Below, in pieces: positions 30,707 through 55,229 of a stretch of 64,000 bases of DNA. Both the position numbers and the translations under genes were made by a program. This stretch comes from Chelatococcus sp. HY11 (GTDB lineage: Bacteria > Pseudomonadota > Alphaproteobacteria > Rhizobiales > Beijerinckiaceae). Below the pieces are notes generated by a model. The model was not told where the DNA came from and made no database searches. It worked only from the letters and a program-made list of their open reading frames with translations. The number at the start of each line of letters is the position of its first letter. The first letter of the stretch is position 1. The DNA is taken from contig NZ_JAHBRX010000001.1 of assembly GCF_018398335.1 (NCBI RefSeq), forward strand, positions 4,557,501-4,621,500, in the 5' to 3' direction.

Positions 30707-31113
30707 CAGGCGCTCATGGTCGGCAGTAAAAGGAATGACATCCGCATCCGGTCATCCCGGAGTGGGGCGAAACGTGAGGCCTGGGATCCAGGCCTCCGGC
30801 TAGAGCGAATCCGACTTGCACGACATCCGATGCAACAATCCAAGTCGATAAATTTGCTCTTCGATTTCTTGCATCGAGCAAATCCCCGACAGAAGGGTTG
30901 CCCTTGGGACAGGTCGAAATTCCGGAGCCCCTTTTTGTCCCGTGTCATCAAGTCAGCCGCGACGCGTCGATCCCTCCCCTTGAGGGGAGGGATCAGTGGC
31001 GGCGGTTCCCCGATCCATGGATATGCTGGTGGCAAGTCCCGCATCAGCGGCGTCCATCCATTCCGGGCTCAGCCTGCGCCATCCCGGAATGACCTGTCCC
31101 CGCAGCGCTGACC
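30707..31113. repeat. Repeat-filled gap between livK and livH
   Basis: No gene is seen. Four palindromic structures are visible: GAGGCCTGG-GAT-CCAGGCCTC (30776-30796); nested dyads CGATGCAA/TTGCATCG (30828-30876) and ATTTGCTC/GAGCAAAT (30852-30883); a 26-bp palindrome of type B, GATCCCTCCCCT-TG-AGGGGAGGGATC (30969-30994); and CATTCCGGG/CCCGGAATG (31059-31091). The folded RNA could lower expression of livH-M-G-F relative to the binding protein, a common pattern for ABC operons, but this is inference. Confidence 0.75.
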
Positions 31114-35240: not shown

Positions 35241-35509
35241 CCCCTCTCCCGTGTGGAAGAGGGACAGGGTGAGGGTTTACCGTTTGCTGTCATATCGAGG
35301 GTTTCCCCCTCACCCCAACCCTCTCCCCGCTGGGGAGAGGGGGCCTGTCACGCCCGGCGGCACGCTCTGTGCCGCTGTCGTCAAGATTCTGGAGTGATCG
35401 CTGGCGTTCCCTCTCCCGCTGGGAGAGGGACAGGGTGAGGGTTTGCGGTCCGTTGTCGTATGGAGGGTTTCCCTTCGCCCACCCTCTCCCCGCCGGGAAG
35501 AGGGGGCTG
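35241..35509. repeat. Tandem type-A palindromic repeats downstream of the hydrolase
   Basis: Four CCCTCTCCC...GGGAGAGGG-type hairpins lie at about 35242-35263, 35320-35342, 35409-35430 and 35483-35505, joined by CAGGGTGAGGGTTT segments. The last two belong to a block (35335-35460) that recurs as a direct repeat at 36989-37115, on the other side of the flavin monooxygenase gene, with about 90% identity by eye. The gap holds no gene. Confidence 0.88.
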
Positions 35510-35525
35510 TCGCGCGAGCCGGACG

Positions 35526-36764
35526 CTAGGCCGCCTTGCCTTTGTCCGCCGCGAAGCCGGCGCGCTGGGCATAGCCGCGGACAATAGCTTCGCGCTCGGC
35601 GTAGCTCAGCACCTCTTCGATGTTCGTGAACCCCTCGGGCGCCAGCTTTTCCACCGCGTCGATCACGCCTTCCGGCCCGCCTTTACGGTTGGAATGCACG
35701 ATCTCGGCCGTCTTTGGCAGCCGCTCGGCGTCATAGGCGGCGAGCGCCTGCATGGGATGCTCGGCGCGAACCAACGCATCACCCAGCGCGCGCGCATCGA
35801 GGATCGCCTGGGATGCTCCGTTCGAGCCCACGGGATACATAGGATGAGCGGCATCACCGAGGAGGGTGACGCGGCCGTGTGACCAGCGCGGCAGGGGGTT
35901 GCGATCGCTCAGGGGATATTCCCAGAAGGTCTCTGTCGCACGCATCAGCGCGTGGACGTCGACATGCGGGATACTGATCCCGGCGGTGTTTGGCGTCAGA
36001 TCGTCCCAATGGCCCGGTCGCGACCAGTTCTCGCGGGCCGGCAGGCTTGTGCCATCCCCGAGCTTGCCGATGACCGCCCAGTTGGTGAAGACCGTGTCCG
36101 GTGTCGAGCCCTCGGCGATGGGATAAACCACCATCTTGGATTCAAGACCGCCGGCGATGATCATCGACCGGCCGGTCAGGAAGCGTGGCCAGTCCCGCGC
36201 GCCGCGCCACAGAACAAGGCCGTTCCAGATCGGCCCGCCCTCGTCGGGAAACAGCGTCCGGCGCACGACGGAATGAATGCCGTCCGCGCCGACAAGGATC
36301 TCCCCGCGTGCGGTTTCGACGGGCGTGCCGGCATGGTCGGTGAATTCAGCACTGACACCGCCTTCATCCTGGGTGAAGGATGCGAGCCGACGGCCTGTAT
36401 GCACCTTGTCCGCGCCAAGGCGCTCGATCACGGCATCGAGGATGACCGACTGCAGCCGGCCGCGGTGGATGGAAAACTGCGGCACGTCGTGGCCGGCGTC
36501 GAGCCCGCGTGGCTCGTGCCACACTTCCTGGCCCTGCCGGTTGAGGTAAAAGAGCTCATGGGTGCGGATCGCCACGGCATCCAGACGGTCGAGGAGGCCA
36601 AGCGCCGCCAATTCACGAATGGCGTGGGGCAGGACATTGATGCCGACACCGAGCTCCTGGATGCTCGCCGCCTGCTCGTAGATTTCACACTCAAGGCCGC
36701 GGGCATGCAGCATCAAGGCCGTGGTCAGGCCGCCAATACCCCCGCCGACGATAATGGCCTTCAT
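35526..36764 (-). CDS. Flavin-dependent monooxygenase (PhzS/hydroxybenzoate hydroxylase-like)
   Basis: 412 residues. FAD binding is shown by IIVGGGIGGLTTALML at the N-terminus, the middle EILVGADGIHSVVR (DG motif) and the late GDAAHPMYPVGSNGASQA (GD motif). It belongs to the single-component NADH/FAD aromatic hydroxylases, closest in feel to PhzS and related 'flavin-dependent oxidoreductases'. GAGGGGAA precedes the ATG. It is convergent with the CoA-ligase/hydrolase pair and bracketed by direct copies of a palindromic repeat, so it may be a movable or later addition to the aromatic locus. Substrate unknown. Confidence 0.85.
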   Translation of the reverse strand: MKAIIVGGGIGGLTTALMLHARGLECEIYEQAASIQELGVGINVLPHAIRELAALGLLDRLDAVAIRTHELFYLNRQGQEVWHEPRGLDAGHDVPQFSIHRGRLQSVILDAVIERLGADKVHTGRRLASFTQDEGGVSAEFTDHAGTPVETARGEILVGADGIHSVVRRTLFPDEGGPIWNGLVLWRGARDWPRFLTGRSMIIAGGLESKMVVYPIAEGSTPDTVFTNWAVIGKLGDGTSLPARENWSRPGHWDDLTPNTAGISIPHVDVHALMRATETFWEYPLSDRNPLPRWSHGRVTLLGDAAHPMYPVGSNGASQAILDARALGDALVRAEHPMQALAAYDAERLPKTAEIVHSNRKGGPEGVIDAVEKLAPEGFTNIEEVLSYAEREAIVRGYAQRAGFAADKGKAA

Positions 36765-37218
36765 GGCTCGTTCCCCTCGTTCTCTGGATCGACGCTTTTC
36801 GACGCGGTTCTATGGGATCACGTCAATGCTTTAAGTTTAAAACAATAGCATAGGGCAGACGAGGGAGGGATACAAAAAATCGCGCCCGATCGAAAGACCG
36901 GACGCGTTGACGATCGTTCAGCTCTTCCGGGCTTAGAGGTCGCACCGCAGTTGCAGGTGAGGGGCAGCCCGCAACCCTCTCCCGACGGGAGAGGGGGGCC
37001 TGTCGCGCCAGGCGGCACGCTCAACGTCGCTGTCGTCGGGATCGTGGAGTGATCGCTGGCGTTCCCTCTCCCGGTGGGAGAGGGACAGGGTGAGGGTTTG
37101 CGGTCTGTCGTCGTAGTGGGCTTCCCCTCACTCCAATCCTCTGCCCGGGGGAGAGGGAGACATGCGTCGCGCCTTCTGCCATTCGAACGACTGTAGGGCG
37201 CAACGCGAGTTGGTCGAC
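36765..37218. repeat. Gap with type-A repeats upstream of the monooxygenase
   Basis: Next to the monooxygenase start is an AT-rich patch with ATGCT...AGCAT (36826-36851) around TTTAAGTTTAAAAC, a plausible promoter/operator. Then follow repeat hairpins at about 36974-36995 (CCCTCTCCCGACGGGAGAGGG) and 37063-37084, and a degenerate one near 37137-37158. The segment 36989-37115 is the direct repeat of 35335-35460. No gene is seen. Confidence 0.8.
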
Positions 37219-48285: not shown

Positions 48286-49328
48286 CCTCTCCTGTGGCGG
48301 CCACGGCCAAGGTTCCCTGCACCATCGTCACCGGCTTCCTCGGCGCCGGCAAGACGAGCCTCCTGCGCCACGTGCTCACCAACGCGGACGGGCGCCGGCT
48401 CGCCGTCATCGTCAACGAGTTCGGCGATGTCGGCATCGACGGCGAGATCCTGAAGGGCTGCGGCGTCGAGGCCTGCCCGGAGGACAATATCGTCGAGCTC
48501 GCCAACGGGTGCCTCTGCTGCACGGTTGCGGATGATTTCATCCCGGCGCTGGAGGGCCTGCTGGCCAAGGCGGAACCGCCGGAGCACATCCTCATCGAGA
48601 CCTCGGGGCTCGCCCTGCCGAAGCCTCTGGTCAAGGCCTTCAACTGGCCGGCGATCGCCTCGCGCGTCACCGTCGATGGCGTCATCACCGTTGTCGATGG
48701 CGCGGCGACCGCCGCCGGGCGCTTTGCCGACGATCTCGAGGCGCTCGCCCGCCAGCGCGCGGCCGATCCCTCGCTCGAGCACGACAATCCCCTCGAGGAG
48801 GTCTTCGAGGACCAGTTGCTCTCGGCCGATCTCGTCATCCTCAACAAGGCCGACCTTCTCACGGGCGATGACGAGGCCCGGGTGCGCGCCGAGATCGCGG
48901 AAACCGTGCCGCGCGCCGTGAAGGTCGTCACCACCCGCGAGGGCGTGGTCGATCCCAAGGTTCTGCTCGGCCTCGGCGCGGCGGCGGAAAGCGACCTCGA
49001 CGCGCGTCCTTCCCATCACGATGCGGAAGGGGAGCACGATCACGACGATTTCGACTCGTTCGTCGTCGAAATCCCCGAGCAGGGGGACGCGGAGGCGATG
49101 ATCGCGCGGCTCAGGGCGGCCGCCGAAGCCCATGACATCCTGCGAATCAAGGGCTTTCTCGCCATCGCCGGCAAGCCGCTGCGGCTTCTCGTGCAGGGCG
49201 TCGGCGCCCGCTTCCAGCAGCAGTTCGAGCGCCCCTTCGCGGCCACCGAGGCGCGGGGCGGCCGGCTCGTGGTCATCGGCCAGAAGGGCTTCGACCGCGA
49301 GGCCGTGACGGCTGCCATCCTCGGCTGA
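48282..49328 (+). CDS. cobW: CobW: GTP-dependent metal chaperone of cobalamin synthesis
   Basis: 348 residues. GTPase motifs are Walker A GFLGAGKTS (about 18-26), a Walker B/switch region around EDNIVELANGCLCC, and NKADLL (about 188-193). The CLCC cysteines are the metal site typical of COG0523 proteins. A histidine/acid-rich loop (HHDAEGEHDHDD, about 246-257) may hold extra metal. The C-terminal CobW_C domain follows. It is thought to deliver cobalt for insertion by CobN-S-T. It overlaps DUF1636 and precedes cobN by 12 bases. Confidence 0.95.
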   Translation: MTSPVAATAKVPCTIVTGFLGAGKTSLLRHVLTNADGRRLAVIVNEFGDVGIDGEILKGCGVEACPEDNIVELANGCLCCTVADDFIPALEGLLAKAEPPEHILIETSGLALPKPLVKAFNWPAIASRVTVDGVITVVDGAATAAGRFADDLEALARQRAADPSLEHDNPLEEVFEDQLLSADLVILNKADLLTGDDEARVRAEIAETVPRAVKVVTTREGVVDPKVLLGLGAAAESDLDARPSHHDAEGEHDHDDFDSFVVEIPEQGDAEAMIARLRAAAEAHDILRIKGFLAIAGKPLRLLVQGVGARFQQQFERPFAATEARGGRLVVIGQKGFDREAVTAAILG

Positions 49329-49340
49329 GGGGAGGGGGCG

Positions 49341-52300
49341 ATGCATCTCCTGCCGGTTACGGCTGTCGGGCTCGACCAGGCGGAAACGCCGGTCGACCTC
49401 GGCCAGACGCCGGCGGAGATGGTGATCCTCTCCTTCACCGACACGGACCTCGCCGCGCTCGCCACGGCCCATGAGCGCGCCGGCAAATCCCTTCCGACAC
49501 TCCGGCTCGCCAATCTCCAGCGCCTCAGGCACCCGCTGTCGGTCGATCTCTATGTGGAGGAGGTCATCGATAAGGCGCGGATCGTCGTGATGCGCTGCCT
49601 CGGCGGGCTCGATTATCTCGACTACGGCCTCAACGAGATTGCCGCGAGTTGCATCAGGCGCGGGGCCATCCTCGTGGCCCTCGCCGGCGACGACCGGCCC
49701 GACGAGCGCCTCGCCGCCCTGTCGCGCGCCGACGGCGACTTCTACGACGCGCTGGACGGCTATTTCCGCGCCGGCGGCGTGGACAATCTCGGCGCGGCGC
49801 TTACGCTGATGGCTAATGCGCTCGGCGCAAGCCTTCCTATCGTACCCGCGCGCCCCGTACCGGCAGCGGGGGACTTTCCCCTGAAAGCGCCCGTTTCACC
49901 TCTCCCCGGCGGGGAGAGGTCGGACGCGCAGCGTCCGGGTGAGGGGGGGGCTTACGCTTCTCCGACGTTGCTCCCCCTCACCTCAGCCCTCTCCCCGCCG
50001 GGGAGAGGGAGTGGAGCCAGTCTTGCCCGGCCAGGGGCCAGTGAAGAAGAGGCCGGAGCGCAAGGCCCGGGTGAGGGCACTGGAAGCGCCGCCGCCGATC
50101 CCTCCCCTCCAGGGGAGGGTGGCGCCGCAGGCGCCGGGTGGGGCCCCGGCCTCCACCATTTCCACGCAGACAGACGCACGCTGACCCCACCCGACCTTGC
50201 CGGAGGCAAGGCCACCCTCCCCTGGAGGGGAGGGATCGCGGAGCCTTTCGCGGAGAGCGGCGCAACAGCGCTCATCCTGTTCTACCGCTCGGTCTATCTC
50301 GCGGGCGATACCGCACCGATCACGGCGCTGGCGGCGGCCCTCGTGGAACGGGGCCTCACCCCCGTCGCACTCTTCGTCTCCAGCCTGAAGGATCCCGAGG
50401 CGATCGCGATCGTCGAGGCGGCGATCGCGCGTCACAGGCCGGCGGTGATCTTGAACACGACGGCCTTCTCGGCGCAGCGGAACGAGGGCGGCAGCGTGCT
50501 CGATCGCGCCGACTGCCCTGTGCTGCAGGTGATCCTCGCCGGGGCACCGCGGGCGGCCTGGGACGAGAGCCCGCGCGGCCTCGGAGCCGCCGATTTCGCC
50601 ATGAATGTCGCCCTGCCGGAGATCGACGGGCGGCTCACGACGACCGCGATTTCCTTCAAGGCCGAGGCACCGGCCAATCCGGCGCTCGAATTCGCCGTGG
50701 TGCGCCATCAGCCCGATCAGGCCCAGATCGCCCTCGTCGCGGAGCGCGCGGCGGGATGGGCGCGGCTCGCCGCCACGCCGCCCGCCGCGCGGCGCATCGC
50801 GGTGATCGTCGCCGACTATCCCTCGCGCGGCGGGCGCACCGGCTATGCGGTGGGTCTCGACACCGGCCGCAGCGCCGCCAATGTGCTGTCCTGGCTGGCG
50901 GGAGCGGGCTACGCGGCTGACAAGACCGTTCCGGCCGAGGCCATCCTGCTGCGGCTGGAAGCCGGCACGGAGCGCGCGGCGCTCAGCCTGTCACACTACC
51001 GGGATTGGCTTATGGCCACACCGCAAGCCTTCCGCGACGCGGTGACGGCGGCCTGGGGCGAGCCGGAGGACGACTCGGCGGTTGGGGACGGCGCGTTCTC
51101 CTTCCCTGTCCTGAGGGCCGGCCATGTCGTGCTCGCCCTTCAGCCGGAGCGCGGGCGAGACGCCGACCGCAAGGCGAGCTATCATGACCCGGCGCTGCCG
51201 CCGCGCCACGCCTATTGCGCCTTCTATGCCTGGCTTGCGCTCGGCCGGTCGGGCGGCGGCGAGGAGGTCGATGCCATCGTCCATCTCGGCACCCATGGCA
51301 CGCTCGAATGGCTGCCGGGCAAGACCGCCGCGCTGTCGCCCGCCTGCGCGCCGCAGGTGCTGACGGGCGCGCTGCCGGTGATCTATCCCTTCATCGTCAA
51401 TAATCCCGGCGAGGCGGCGGTGGCGCGCCGGCGGATAGGGGCGGTGACCATCGGCCATCTCACGCCGCCGATCAGCGAGGCGGGGCTCCATGGCGCGTCG
51501 GCCGAGCTCGAGGCGCTGGTTGATGAATACGCGGCCGCCGACGGCCTTGATAGCAAGCGCCAACGGCTCCTGAAATCCGCCATCGTCGACAAGGCGCGCG
51601 AGACGGGCCTTGCCGCCGAATGCGGCGCCGAGGCGAGCGATGACGACACGCTGATCACCGCGCTCGATGCCTGGCTGTGCGACCTCAAGGAGTTCGCCAT
51701 ACGCGACGGGCTGCATGTGCTCGGCGAGGCGCCCACACCCGCCTCCGGCGAGGCGATGGCGGTCTTGATGGGAGGCGCCGCAGCGGAAACGCGCCTGCGT
51801 ATCGCGGCTTCTCCACAAGCGGAAAAAGCCGCGCTGCTGGCGGCGCTCGACGGGCGCTTCGTACCGCCGGGACCGGCGGGAGCGCCGACGCGCGGCCGGC
51901 TCGACGTGCTGCCGACCGGCCGCAATCTCACCGGGCTCGACCCGCGCGCCATCCCGACACGCACGGCGCTTGCCATCGGGGAGCGGGCGGCAGCGGAAGT
52001 GCTGCGACGCTATCTACAGGATCATGGCGACTGGCCGCGCGCGCTCGTCATGGACCTCTGGGCCTCGATGACGCTGCGCACCGGTGGCGACGACCTTGCC
52101 GAGGCACTGGTGCTGATGGGCGCACGCCCGCGCTGGGACCATGCCTCGAACCGTGTCACTGGCGTCGAGATCGTGCCCGGGCCGCGCATGGACCGGCCGC
52201 GCATCGATGTGACCTTGCGTATTTCCGGCCTTTTCCGGGATGCCTTCGCCCAGCAGATCACCCTGTTCGACCAGGCGGTCAAGGCGATTGCGGCGCTCGA

Positions 52301-53066
52301 CGAGGAGGACGACTTCAACCCGCTCGCGGCCGCGCGGCGGCGCGGCGAGCCGCTCGACCGTATTTTCTCCGGCGCGCCGGGCACCTATGGCGCGGGGGTG
52401 TCCGCGCAGGTGCTGGATGGCGACTGGTCGGGGCGTGACGCCCTTGGCGCCAGCTATCTCGCGGCCGGCGGCTATGCCATCGGGGCCGACGGGACGGCGC
52501 GGCCGGCGTCCGAGGCCTTCAGGGAGCGCGTGCGGACCGCCGACGCGCTGGTTCACGCCCGCGACGACGGCGAGCGCGACGCGCTCGACACCGAGGACGT
52601 GGCCGATTTCGTCGGCGGCTTCGCGGCGGCAGCCGAGGCGCTCGGCGCGAGCCCCGCGCTCATCCATCTCGACACCAGCCGGCCGGACGCGCCGCGCGCG
52701 CGCCTGATGGCCGAGGAAATCGCCCGCATCGCCCGCAGCCGCCTCGCCAATCCGCGCTGGATCGCGGGACAGCTGCGCCATGGCTATCGCGGCGTCGCCG
52801 AGCTCGCGCAGGGGGTCGATGCGCTCTATGCCTTCGCGGCGACCTCGAACGCGGTCGGCCATCGGCCCTTTGAGCTGGTCTTTGACGCCTATGTCGCCGA
52901 CGAGGCCGTGTGGTCGGCCCTGTCGGCCGCCAATCCCGCCGCTGCCCGCGCCATCGCCGCGCGCTTCGCCGATGCCCTGAAGCGCGGTCTGTGGCAGCCT
53001 CGCCGCAATTCGGTCTACGGGCGGCTCGCGGCCGCCCTCGATGCGATGCCGGAGGCTGCGCAGTGA
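49341..53066 (+). CDS. cobN: CobN: cobaltochelatase large subunit, with palindromic-repeat insertion
   Basis: 1241 residues. It binds hydrogenobyrinic acid a,c-diamide and, with CobS and CobT (not in this window), inserts cobalt using ATP. The core shows FYRSVYLAGDTAPI, HLGTHGTLEWLPGK (about 647-660) and QVLDGDWSGRDALG in the C-terminal half. AGGGGGCG precedes the ATG. Residues about 180-300 are unlike the family: a Pro/Gly-rich linker encoded by two type-A hairpins and a 141-bp type-B palindrome, all read through in frame. The conserved sequence resumes at ESGATALILFYRS. The linker lies between the N-terminal domain and the main chelatase body, where it may be tolerated. Confidence 0.95.
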   Translation: MHLLPVTAVGLDQAETPVDLGQTPAEMVILSFTDTDLAALATAHERAGKSLPTLRLANLQRLRHPLSVDLYVEEVIDKARIVVMRCLGGLDYLDYGLNEIAASCIRRGAILVALAGDDRPDERLAALSRADGDFYDALDGYFRAGGVDNLGAALTLMANALGASLPIVPARPVPAAGDFPLKAPVSPLPGGERSDAQRPGEGGAYASPTLLPLTSALSPPGRGSGASLARPGASEEEAGAQGPGEGTGSAAADPSPPGEGGAAGAGWGPGLHHFHADRRTLTPPDLAGGKATLPWRGGIAEPFAESGATALILFYRSVYLAGDTAPITALAAALVERGLTPVALFVSSLKDPEAIAIVEAAIARHRPAVILNTTAFSAQRNEGGSVLDRADCPVLQVILAGAPRAAWDESPRGLGAADFAMNVALPEIDGRLTTTAISFKAEAPANPALEFAVVRHQPDQAQIALVAERAAGWARLAATPPAARRIAVIVADYPSRGGRTGYAVGLDTGRSAANVLSWLAGAGYAADKTVPAEAILLRLEAGTERAALSLSHYRDWLMATPQAFRDAVTAAWGEPEDDSAVGDGAFSFPVLRAGHVVLALQPERGRDADRKASYHDPALPPRHAYCAFYAWLALGRSGGGEEVDAIVHLGTHGTLEWLPGKTAALSPACAPQVLTGALPVIYPFIVNNPGEAAVARRRIGAVTIGHLTPPISEAGLHGASAELEALVDEYAAADGLDSKRQRLLKSAIVDKARETGLAAECGAEASDDDTLITALDAWLCDLKEFAIRDGLHVLGEAPTPASGEAMAVLMGGAAAETRLRIAASPQAEKAALLAALDGRFVPPGPAGAPTRGRLDVLPTGRNLTGLDPRAIPTRTALAIGERAAAEVLRRYLQDHGDWPRALVMDLWASMTLRTGGDDLAEALVLMGARPRWDHASNRVTGVEIVPGPRMDRPRIDVTLRISGLFRDAFAQQITLFDQAVKAIAALDEEDDFNPLAAARRRGEPLDRIFSGAPGTYGAGVSAQVLDGDWSGRDALGASYLAAGGYAIGADGTARPASEAFRERVRTADALVHARDDGERDALDTEDVADFVGGFAAAAEALGASPALIHLDTSRPDAPRARLMAEEIARIARSRLANPRWIAGQLRHGYRGVAELAQGVDALYAFAATSNAVGHRPFELVFDAYVADEAVWSALSAANPAAARAIAARFADALKRGLWQPRRNSVYGRLAAALDAMPEAAQ
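49898..50009. repeat. Two type-A palindromes inside cobN
   Basis: ACCTCTCCCC-GGC-GGGGAGAGGT (49898-49920) and CCCTCTCCCC-GCC-GGGGAGAGGG (49987-50009), each with perfect 10-base arms. Between them lie CGGACGC-GCA-GCGTCCG (49921-49937), GGGTGAGGGGG and CTCCCCCTCACC. This is the same paired layout as the intergenic copies, but here it encodes residues about 186-223 of CobN. Confidence 0.92.
50097..50237. repeat. Type-B palindromic element inside cobN (141 bp, in frame)
   Basis: It is bounded by perfect 27-base inverted arms: 50097-50123 and 50211-50237, each outermost with GATCCCTCCCC or its complement. An inner dyad CGGGTGGGG (50135-50143) pairs with CCCCACCCG (50185-50193). It is exactly 47 codons long, beginning at a codon boundary with D-P-S-P-P-G-E-G-G and ending R-G-G-I. 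Confidence 0.95.
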
Positions 53067-54592
53067 GCGCGGCGACCGCTGCCGATCGCCGGCGCGGCTG
53101 GTGCCCTGGGGCCCTGCGGCCGATGGCGACGGGTGATGGCCTGCTCGTGCGGCTGCGTCTCACCGCAGGGTATCTGCCGGCGGCGACCGCGCGGCTGATC
53201 GCCGATCTCGCCATGCGCCACGGCAACGGGCTGATCGACCTCAGCAGCCGCGCCAATCTGCAACTGCGCGGCGTGACCGAGACAAGCCTCGGTTCGCTGC
53301 AGTCGGAACTGGCGCAAGCCGGCCTCCTCGATGAGAGCCCCGCCCATGAAGCCGCGCGCAACGTGCTGGCGAGCCCGCTGTCGGATTGCGACCCGACGGC
53401 CTTGTGCGACGCGCGCGGGGCGGCGCGAGCGCTGGAAGCGGCGCTGATGGCTGCCGCTGATCCCTCCCCTCAAGGGGAGGGTGGCCTTGCCTTCGGCAAG
53501 GTCGGGTGGGGAAAAAGGGCGGCGGATGTCTGGTCCCCACCCGGCGCCTGCGGCGCCACCCTCACCTTGAGGGGAGGGATCGGCGCGCCACTGGCTCTGC
53601 CGCCCAAGTTCTCCTGGATCGTCGACGACGGCGGCGCGCTGGCGCTGGACGACATCGCAGCCGATGTCCGTTTTCGCGCTGTCATGCACGAAGGCGTGGT
53701 GCTCTGGGCGGTCGGCCTCGATACGCTGGCGGGCATCGACTGGATCGGCGCCTCACCGCTTTCAGCCTTGCCGGATATCGCCCGCGCGATCGGCCTCGCC
53801 TTTGTCGAGGCGATGGCGCGGAATCCCGGCTTGCGCCGCATGCGCCAGCTCGATGCGGCGGGGCGGCGAGAGTTCGTCTTGGCGCTCGTCATGGCGCTTG
53901 CGCCGTTGCAGGCGGCACCCCCTCACCCCGGCCCTCTCCCCGCCGGGGAGAGGGCCGGGGTGAGGGGTATTCCGACACCCGGAATGGCAACAGACCCAGC
54001 CGTTCTCACGCTCGCCCTACCGTTCGGGCGCATGGCCGCGCGGCAGCTCGCCCTTCTCGCGGAGCTTGTCGAGGAGGGCTGCGGGGCGCTGAGGCTCGGG
54101 CCGTGGCGGCAGGCCCACCTGCCGGGGATCGCCCAGGGCCGGGCGGCAGCGCTGATGGCCAGCGCCGAGGCGGCCGGGTTCATCACGGCGGCCGGTGATG
54201 CACGGCTCGCCATCGCCGCCTGTCCCGGCGCGCCCGCCTGTGGCAGTGGGGAGATGTCGGCCCAGGAGGACGCGGTCCGTATCGCCACGGCGGCTGAGGA
54301 TTTGGCGGACGCCGGCCTCAGCCTCCATGTCTCCGGCTGCGCCAAGGGCTGCGCGGCGCAGGCGACGGGGCGCCGTCCGCCGGGGCTGACACTCGTCGGC
54401 AGCGATGGCCGCTACGAATTGGTGCGCGGCGGCGCGGCCCATGCTAGGCCCATCGTCGCGCTCGGCGCGGCTGAGGCGGCGGCGGGGCTCGCGCGCCTCG
54501 CCGCCCATTGCCGGGCGCGCGGCGGCGCAGCCGCGCTGGCGGCGCTGGGCGACAGGGAATTGGCAGGGATGTTCGTGGCGTCTGATGGTTGA
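53063..54592 (+). CDS. cobG: CobG: precorrin-3B synthase, with palindromic-repeat insertions
   Basis: 509 residues from the GTG at 53063 that overlaps the cobN stop (GTGA). It is a sulfite-reductase-like monooxygenase that makes the ring-contraction substrate precorrin-3B with O2, marking the aerobic pathway. NirS/SiR features are the N-terminal GLIDLSSRANLQLRGV and the [4Fe-4S] ligands in CPGAPACGSGE and SGCAKGCAAQ. It is longer than usual because of two read-through insertions: residues 133-173 from a type-B element and about 286-302 from a perfect type-A palindrome. All core motifs remain intact and in frame. Confidence 0.93.
   Translation: MSAATAADRRRGWCPGALRPMATGDGLLVRLRLTAGYLPAATARLIADLAMRHGNGLIDLSSRANLQLRGVTETSLGSLQSELAQAGLLDESPAHEAARNVLASPLSDCDPTALCDARGAARALEAALMAAADPSPQGEGGLAFGKVGWGKRAADVWSPPGACGATLTLRGGIGAPLALPPKFSWIVDDGGALALDDIAADVRFRAVMHEGVVLWAVGLDTLAGIDWIGASPLSALPDIARAIGLAFVEAMARNPGLRRMRQLDAAGRREFVLALVMALAPLQAAPPHPGPLPAGERAGVRGIPTPGMATDPAVLTLALPFGRMAARQLALLAELVEEGCGALRLGPWRQAHLPGIAQGRAAALMASAEAAGFITAAGDARLAIAACPGAPACGSGEMSAQEDAVRIATAAEDLADAGLSLHVSGCAKGCAAQATGRRPPGLTLVGSDGRYELVRGGAAHARPIVALGAAEAAAGLARLAAHCRARGGAAALAALGDRELAGMFVASDG
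53459..53581. repeat. Type-B palindromic element inside cobG (123 bp, in frame)
   Basis: The terminal 27-base arms 53459-53485 and 53555-53581 are complementary with a single mismatch; the ends are GATC. The inner part has CTTGCC-TTCG-GGCAAG-like and GGCGCC-TGC-GGCGCC hairpins and GGGTGGGG/CCCCACCC. It is 41 codons long, starting on a codon boundary with D-P-S-P-Q-G-E-G-G, the same phase and frame as the cobN copy. Confidence 0.95.
53919..53967. repeat. Type-A palindrome inside cobG with perfect 23-bp arms
   Basis: 23 bases at 53919-53941 are exactly complementary to 53945-53967 around a GCC loop. It encodes about P-H-P-G-P-L-P-A-G-E-R-A-G-V-R-G in CobG. The match between the arms is complete, so the insertion is recent or under conversion. 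Confidence 0.95.
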
Positions 54593-55229
54593 GGCAAGGA
54601 ATTCCGATCGCGACTACATTCGCGAGGGTGACGAGATCTACCGGCGATCCTTCGCCATCATCCGCTCCGAGGCGCGGCTTGCGCGCTTCTCGCCGGTGGA
54701 AGAGCGGGTCGCCGTGCGCATCATCCACGCCTCGGGCATGGTCGAGGTGGCCGACGACATCGCCATGACGCCGGATTTCGCCGAGACCGCGCGATCGGCG
54801 CTCCGCGCCGGCGCGCCCATCCTCTGCGACTCCAAGATGGTCGCGAACGGCATCACCCGCGCGCGCCTGCCGGCGGACAATGCGGTGATCTGCACGCTCG
54901 ACGATCCCTCCGTGCCGGGTCTCGTGCGCGAGATCGGCAATACGCGCAGCGCCGCGGCGCTCGAATTGTGGCGTCCGCATCTCGATGGCGCCGTCGCCGT
55001 CTTCGGCAATGCGCCGACCGCCGTGTTCCGCCTGCTCGAGATGCTGGATGCGGGAGCTCCCAAGCCTGCCGCCGTCATCGGCCTCCCCGTCGGCTTCGTC
55101 GGCGCGGCCGAGTCCAAGGAGGCGCTGATGGCCGATGGCCGCGTGCCGGCGCTCATCGTGAAAGGGCGCAAGGGCGGCAGCGCCATGGCGGCGGCGGCCG
55201 TGAACGCGCTGGCGAGGGACGCCGAGTGA
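54585..55229 (+). CDS. cobH: CobH: precorrin-8X methylmutase
   Basis: 214 residues from the ATG at 54585, which overlaps the end of cobG by 8 bases. The catalytic histidine is H48 in RIIHASGMVEVADDI, and the substrate-binding segments CDSKMVANGI and GLPVGFVGAAESKEAL are typical. It moves the C11 methyl to C12, giving hydrogenobyrinic acid. It is followed by cobI with a GTGA overlap. Confidence 0.95.
   Translation: MVEARNSDRDYIREGDEIYRRSFAIIRSEARLARFSPVEERVAVRIIHASGMVEVADDIAMTPDFAETARSALRAGAPILCDSKMVANGITRARLPADNAVICTLDDPSVPGLVREIGNTRSAAALELWRPHLDGAVAVFGNAPTAVFRLLEMLDAGAPKPAAVIGLPVGFVGAAESKEALMADGRVPALIVKGRKGGSAMAAAAVNALARDAE

What the first reader, a model, noticed from the sequence alone, without database searches (positions are those of the whole stretch)
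50097..53581. Both coding copies use the same codon phase and reading frame: a candidate protein-coding palindromic element
In cobN and cobG the element begins at codon position 1 with GAT and is translated D-P-S-P-x-G-E-G-G ... A-T-L-x-x-R-G-G-I. By chance two insertions would share strand and phase one time in six, and only some frames lack stops. This parallels Rickettsia palindromic elements, which also insert in frame in genes. I infer a family whose one open frame makes insertions survivable.
Basis: partly seen in the sequence, partly recalled or inferred. Interest (0 to 1): 0.85.

Follow-up and report, generated by a model that had tools for sequence, protein, structure and literature searches.

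The report
Palindromic repeats tolerated in gene linkers
This bacterium carries many copies of a short hairpin-forming DNA repeat that nearly always sit between genes; the few inside genes seem to survive because they lie in floppy protein linkers without breaking the reading frame, and two vitamin B12 genes hold such repeats in several groups of bacteria.

Summary
The two copies exist as stated: 141 nt in cobN, 123 nt in cobG, GAT at codon position 1 in both. The copies lie in opposite orientation; the shared peptide ends come from near-palindromic termini. Family A, seen only in this genus (4 of 31 genomes), is a REP/BIME-like double-hairpin repeat: at least 49 places in the genome, 4 clearly inside genes. 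In 1.22 contiguous Mb, 4 of 32 A/B clusters are genic though 81% is coding. All 4 genes read the 5' end as D-P-[SF]-P, but their 3' ends fall in all three frames, and intergenic copies are about equally open in each phase (46, 54, 42 of 98). So no single open frame explains survival. In cobN the element shows no codon-position bias; in the cobG model it coincides with a disordered stretch. What seems to matter is the landing place: palindromic repeats of other genera sit in the same cobG linker (27 of 32 long linkers outside Chelatococcus; controls, Chelatococcus included, 1 of 70). The element is ordinary; the recurrent cobG/cobN site is the new part.

The parts
49341..53066 (+). cobN ORF (1241 aa) carrying families B and A in frame
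   Evidence: ORF; Pfam CobN-Mg_chel PF02514
53063..54592 (+). cobG ORF (509 aa from GTG 53063) carrying families A and B in frame
   Evidence: ORF; Pfam NIR_SIR_ferr PF03460
50097..50237 (+). family A element, 141 nt, cobN residues 253-299
53459..53581 (-). family A element, 123 nt, cobG residues 133-173, opposite in orientation to the cobN copy
49899..50008 (.). family B element in cobN (two hairpins, middle stem)
53919..53967 (.). family B-type palindrome in cobG (stem 24, loop 1)
30969..30994 (.). 26-nt remnant of family A between genes; sister species hold full 171-nt copies at the orthologous place (L148, L187)

Best explanation
Family A is a genus-specific, non-autonomous, REP/BIME-like palindromic repeat. 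Its unit is about 50 nt: an end hairpin GATCCCTCCCCTnnAGGGGAGGG, TGGC, a second hairpin, GGGTGGGG. Units are often paired in inverted orientation (107-183 nt). Shown: copies lie mostly between genes; four clear genic copies are in frame, in linkers, and are shared by orthologous genes of sister species; the cobN copy drifts without visible codon-position bias. Shown: full copies and 26-nt remnants occupy orthologous places. Inferred: the remnants arise by deletion between the two end hairpins, which are also direct repeats; copies spread by an unidentified enzyme; insertions in genes are removed by selection unless net length is a multiple of three, no stop arises and the site is a linker. The cobN and cobG linkers pass this filter so often that repeats of several genera have gathered there. 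The shared D-P-S-P phase is chance or a mild bias, not the cause of survival.
For: Repeat: at least 49 places; end pattern in 4 of 31 genomes, all of one genus. Gene avoidance: 4 of 32 clusters, binomial 1.6e-16; of 208 genic hairpins of any kind in the same 1.22 Mb, 3 have z below -5, two in cobG and one in the ligase. Linkers: cobN insert at reference residues 199-202, cobG inserts at 168 and 271-286. Disorder: pLDDT below 50 at cobG 133-173 and 292-310 and cobN 185-305, besides the N termini. Recurrence: linkers of 40 aa or more with fold z below -3 in 30 of 35 (cobG 262-292), against 1 of 70 control stretches; one criterion for all genes: 13 of 50 hairpins in cobG, 6 of 82 in cobN, 0 of 85 in other genes. 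Drift: cobN element substitutions 28/27/39 at codon positions 1/2/3, rest of gene 422/341/1503. Remnants.
Against: One 5' phase in 4 of 4 genes would arise 1 time in 27 by chance. No clean empty site or target duplication was recovered, so insertion as a discrete event is inferred. No enzyme was identified; PF01797 is absent. The ligase and NuoF-like elements still favour codon position 3 (34/24/51 and 8/11/22), so weak constraint there is not excluded. Tolerance alone may not explain why cobG is hit so often when 520 kb of other genes in the same loci showed none. Length variability of the linkers is partly caused by the inserts themselves.
Confidence: 0.8

Rival explanations
1. One reading: the family has one privileged open frame (D-P-S-P...R-G-G-I) that makes its insertions survivable, a protein-coding palindromic element.
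For: 5' phase shared by 4 of 4 genes, and by the Chthonobacter look-alike.
Against: Open frames about equal among phases; 3' frames differ; few copies in genes; near-equal substitution at the three codon positions in the cobN element.
Confidence: 0.08
2. The shared 5' phase comes from target choice: the element enters GC-rich targets that in a GC-rich genome fall mostly in one codon phase.
For: Codons before GAT are GCC or GCT in cobN, cobG and the NuoF-like genes; intergenic copies too are often preceded by GCC or GCT-like bases (by eye).
Against: No empty site to read the target; the ligase copies are preceded by CCA, CCG or ATC; four events are few.
Confidence: 0.25
3. CobG and cobN are preferred or useful landing sites, for example because a hairpin between domains tunes cob mRNA or translation.
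For: Recurrence in several genera, repeats of different sequence at one linker.
Against: Many relatives lack a long linker (80 cobG sequences aligned, 35 long); no expression data; the linker may simply tolerate length change.
Confidence: 0.15
4. The stretches are not insertions but locally grown GC-rich linkers that happen to be palindromic.
For: No empty site shown.
Against: The same sequence recurs at 49 places in the genome; cobG linker palindromes of three other genera have further copies in their own genomes.
Confidence: 0.03

Closest known systems
REP / BIME elements (Di Nocera et al. 2013, PMC3733652: section 15 read in full, other passages) and REPINs (PMC3116915: search listing only)
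   Same: Short palindromic units, often paired in opposite orientation, mostly between genes, sometimes inside ORFs. PMC3733652 reports REPs in a DNA ligase gene of O. terrae and different REPs at about the same site of recB in two Xanthomonas species.
   Different: Unit of about 50 nt with two hairpins; GATC ends, no GTAG or CGTC tag seen by eye; no PF01797 transposase in the genome.
Rickettsia palindromic elements (passages of the reviews PMC2229807 and PMC10969869; the original PMC186582 is not held)
   Same: Palindromes of 100-150 nt, in-frame insertions in unrelated conserved genes.
   Different: PMC10969869 says nearly half of the reported elements lie in ORFs; here 4 of 49 places. No sequence comparison was made.
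Rhizobium intergenic mosaic elements (RIME; name and likeness recalled, not from a call)
   Same: The palindrome in cobG of L044, L048 and L054 resembles them by recall.
   Different: Not the window's family; not compared with any RIME sequence.

Membership tests
REP/BIME-type palindromic repeat | short palindromic units dispersed in many copies | tested here: met
   at least 49 places, units of about 50 nt
REP/BIME-type palindromic repeat | units paired in opposite orientation | tested here: met
   60 full-length inverted pairs of 107-183 nt in four genomes; single units and outward pairs also occur
REP/BIME-type palindromic repeat | mostly extragenic | tested here: met
   28 of 32 A/B clusters outside genes in 1.22 Mb
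GTAG or CGTC REP superfamily | GTAG or CGTC tag at one end of the unit | tested here: inconclusive
   ends are GATC in the copies listed; judged by eye, no motif search was run
REPIN mobilised by RAYT | tyrosine transposase PF01797 in the genome | tested here: not met
   0 matches at E 0.001; 5 of 14 control genomes positive
Rickettsia palindromic element | sequence homology to an RPE family | not tested
   no RPE sequence was compared
Rickettsia palindromic element | in-frame insertion in several unrelated protein genes | tested here: met
   four genes
Rickettsia palindromic element | a large share of copies inside genes | tested here: not met
   4 clear of 49 places
MITE | terminal inverted repeats with target-site duplication | tested here: inconclusive
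   inverted ends present; no clean empty site recovered

The most novel reading that the evidence does not exclude
The linkers of CobG and CobN are not merely tolerant but preferred or actively kept landing sites for palindromic repeats in Alphaproteobacteria: repeats that look different in sequence have entered the same few residues of two adjacent cobalamin genes in at least seven genera, which suggests targeting of this locus or a benefit of a hairpin between the domains.
Probability: 0.15. Interest if true: 0.75.

Novelty: new member of a known kind. Interest (0 to 1): 0.5.

Why it matters
In-frame palindromes in proteins are best known from Rickettsia. Here a case outside Rickettsia can be followed in sister species, with full and collapsed copies in one gene. 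The cobG and cobN linkers look like natural replicates of how repeats enter proteins: one site, several repeat types, open reading frames. It would also warn annotators that peptides such as D-P-S-P-x-G-E-G and P-L-P-x-G-E-R are repeat-derived.

Tried and rejected
One privileged open frame: rejected by stop counts in 49 non-genic full-length A copies. For 30 family B pairs, genic ones included, the three phases are open in 37, 27 and 36 of 60 readings, so a weak stop effect is possible for B. Same orientation of the window copies: rejected. RAYT: PF01797 absent. Known RNA family: six hits in 49000-55000, all below their gathering scores, best E 0.016. Empty sites: flanks of copies in 105 fetched loci compared across the four genomes gave full/remnant pairs, shared copies and rearranged places, no clean empty site. 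Family B in the order: a strict pattern matched 0 of 61 genomes, a looser one 13 of 61; of the 17 loci returned, two from the window's own genome, none was genic (the gene finder was trained on Chelatococcus). One search used unequal criteria for cobN/cobG and other genes and counted stretches upstream of cobN starts; one search replaces it. One search was read in the wrong frame and is not used.

Rows dropped or not scored. The 49 places are a lower bound: 40 of 85 candidates were scored; 14 of 46 clusters had two mismatches and were left out; 6 of these 14 lie inside gene segments and look like chance matches; with all 46 counted, 10 are genic, still far below 81%. One search flagged six more places. 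L097 and L121 are degraded remnants within the last codons of a gene. L107 and L118 are not read through in the flagged gene, and L108 lies in a short ORF of 132 aa. In L111 (C1:2693388) an outward pair is read through as the C-terminal tail of an ORF that ends 14 codons later; its second unit also reads D-P-S-P; it is not counted among the four; hairpins at reference residues 0-63 of cobN in seven loci (L059, L025, L036, L026, L030, L033, L044) probably lie upstream of the true start; L085 has a further pair at 437-441. L043 has the same doubt. L009 and L149 are the same genome, so the printed 8 of 10 (cobN) and 5 of 5 (cobG 160-176) become 7 of 9 and 4 of 4; without Chelatococcus the counts are 27 of 32 (cobG 262-292) and 3 of 5 (cobN).
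Full report
WHAT IS THERE. The window lies in a 6.95-Mb genome close to Chelatococcus asaccharovorans (cobN product 92% identical to that of DSM 6462; G001 is that strain by its matching contig length). At 50097-50237 and 53459-53581 palindromic elements of 141 and 123 nt lie in cobN and cobG, both left open. Each folds as a long closing stem with side hairpins and a middle stem (z -8.1 and -9.1). GAT is codon position 1 in both, and both lengths are multiples of three. The copies are in opposite orientation (110 of 141 columns identical, against 97 of 149 in the same orientation), so the shared peptide ends follow from the palindromic termini and the inner peptides differ. A second family, B, is also in frame in both genes.

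ANATOMY. From at least 49 places in the genome the unit is about 50 nt: end hairpin, TGGC, second hairpin, GGGTGGGG. Units occur singly, in inverted pairs and in outward pairs (L111, L129). Sixty full-length pairs in four genomes measure 107-183 nt. The end pattern was found in 4 of 31 genomes searched, all of one genus. Remnants of 24-26 nt exist, and sister species hold full copies at orthologous places: 171 against 26 nt (L148 and L187 against L130), 172 against 26 (L134 against L193), 107 or 122 against 26 in the ligase gene. Since each end hairpin is itself a palindrome, the two ends are also direct repeats; deletion between them would give this remnant. That route is inferred.

WHERE COPIES LIE. 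A codon-usage gene finder% of a contiguous 1.22 Mb coding. Of 32 clusters of A or B hairpins with at most one mismatch, 4 lie in genes: cobN, cobG twice, and an ATP-dependent DNA ligase. The chance of 4 or fewer at random is 1.6e-16. A scan of 208 genic hairpins of any kind in the same stretch gave 3 with z below -5, the two in cobG and the ligase; cobN was not among the 208, because the gene finder breaks at its insert. In the whole genome one further clear genic A copy was found, in a gene with NuoF-type domains.

THE PHASE TEST. In all four genes the 5' end is read GAT CCC TYC CCT, that is D-P-[SF]-P. Four would agree by chance 1 time in 27. Orthologous copies in sister species add no independent events: cobN in 4 of 4 genomes, the ligase in 4 of 4 (collapsed in G001), the NuoF-like gene in the three genomes where it was seen (half an element in G001; G003 not seen), cobG in G000 and G002. 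The 3' ends are read in three frames: R-G-G-I in cobN and cobG, P-E-G-E-G-S in the ligase, L-E-G-R-D-R in the NuoF-like gene. Stops do not explain the 5' phase: 49 non-genic full-length copies in both orientations are open in 46, 54 and 42 of 98 readings, and 43 of the 49 have two to four of six frames open. In cobG of G001 and G003 a different palindrome sits at the same residue and is read in another phase, and in-gene palindromes of other genera use several phases. A bias is possible; a single open frame is not its cause.

WHY GENIC COPIES SURVIVE. Aligned with relatives, the cobN insert is at reference residues 199-202 and the Chelatococcus cobG inserts are at 168 and 271-286. Residues 181-200 are the most length-variable 20-residue window of cobN, 201-220 the fifth; 261-280, 161-180 and 281-300 are the first three of cobG. 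This is partly circular, since the inserts add to the variability. AlphaFold models have confidence below 50 at cobG 133-173, which is exactly the family A element, at 292-310, overlapping the family B element (286-301), and at cobN 185-305, which holds both elements; the only other such stretches are the N termini. Among four species the cobN element has substitutions 28/27/39 at codon positions 1/2/3 (not different from equal, P 0.24), the rest of the gene 422/341/1503 (pairwise counts, not independent). Other elements: cobG 3/3/3, ligase 34/24/51, NuoF-like 8/11/22, the last two with some flanking codons; these two still favour position 3.

THE RECURRENT SITE. Eighty loci fetched by cobN similarity alone were scanned. 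The hairpins of A/B type that the gene finder placed inside genes, in 19 loci, all lay in cobN or cobG. Such palindromes sit at or near the same linkers in Ancylobacter and two Mesorhizobium (cobN 199-202) and in Azospirillum and Neorhizobium (cobG 268-287). Linkers of 40 aa or more have fold z below -3 in 30 of 35 cases (cobG 262-292; 27 of 32 without Chelatococcus), against 1 of 70 control stretches of the same genes; for cobG 160-176 in 4 of 4 (all Chelatococcus; controls 1 of 10) and for cobN 190-215 in 7 of 9 (3 of 5 without Chelatococcus; controls 0 of 20), one genome printed twice being counted once in these two. Related species are not independent. With one criterion for all genes, strong palindromes (z below -5) were 13 of 50 tested hairpins in cobG (11 loci), 6 of 82 in cobN (2 loci) and 0 of 85 in other genes. 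The cobG linkers hold repeats that differ in sequence by eye: one in Pseudaminobacter arsenicus with 8 other places in its genome, one in Rhizobium wenxiniae with 4 other places, and an A-like one in Chthonobacter with 11 exact end matches, read D-P-S-P. B-type hairpins number 144, 72, 1, 17, 2 and 165 in six host genomes, so for the two Mesorhizobium the cobN palindrome was not shown to be multi-copy.

MECHANISM. Most likely these are selfish or neutral repeats; insertions in genes are purged unless they add a multiple of three bases, create no stop and fall in a linker. What moves them is unknown: no PF01797 transposase, no clean empty site.

LITERATURE. PMC3733652 (section 15 in full; other passages) already reports REPs inside ORFs, DNA ligase among them, and different REPs at about the same site of recB in two Xanthomonas species. 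RPEs are known here from passages of PMC2229807 and PMC10969869. Searches for REP with cobN (none), precorrin-3B synthase with palindrom (one genome paper) and Chelatococcus with palindromic and repeat (eight listings) showed, by title and abstract start, no report of the cobG/cobN site; the library is partial.

Noticed in passing
L009 8253-8410; L186 and L149 cobG: In C. asaccharovorans and G003 the cobG site that holds family A in the window holds a different palindrome (CCCTCCCCGCAAGGGGGAGGG), in frame but in another phase.
   Followed up: partly
L130, L141, L193 against L148, L187, L190, L134: Full elements and 26-nt remnants at orthologous places, also inside the ligase gene, where the change (96 or 81 nt) keeps the frame.
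   Followed up: partly
L111 3560-4254, L129 3535-3742: Pairs of units facing outward, twice in L111; one of them forms the C-terminal tail of an ORF.
   Followed up: partly
L025 cobG linker: Chthonobacter carries a look-alike repeat (GATCCTTCCCCT ends, second hairpin) that reads D-P-S-P in cobG, at a different linker from the window's A copy.
   Followed up: partly
window 35254-37159: Two diverged direct repeats (167 nt, 80% identical, 1655 nt apart) beside family B-like hairpins.
   Followed up: no
L117, L130, L134, L135, just before the element: Several copies are preceded by a further shared stretch (GTCATCAAGTCAGTCGCGACG-like), so the family may be part of a larger mosaic.
   Followed up: no
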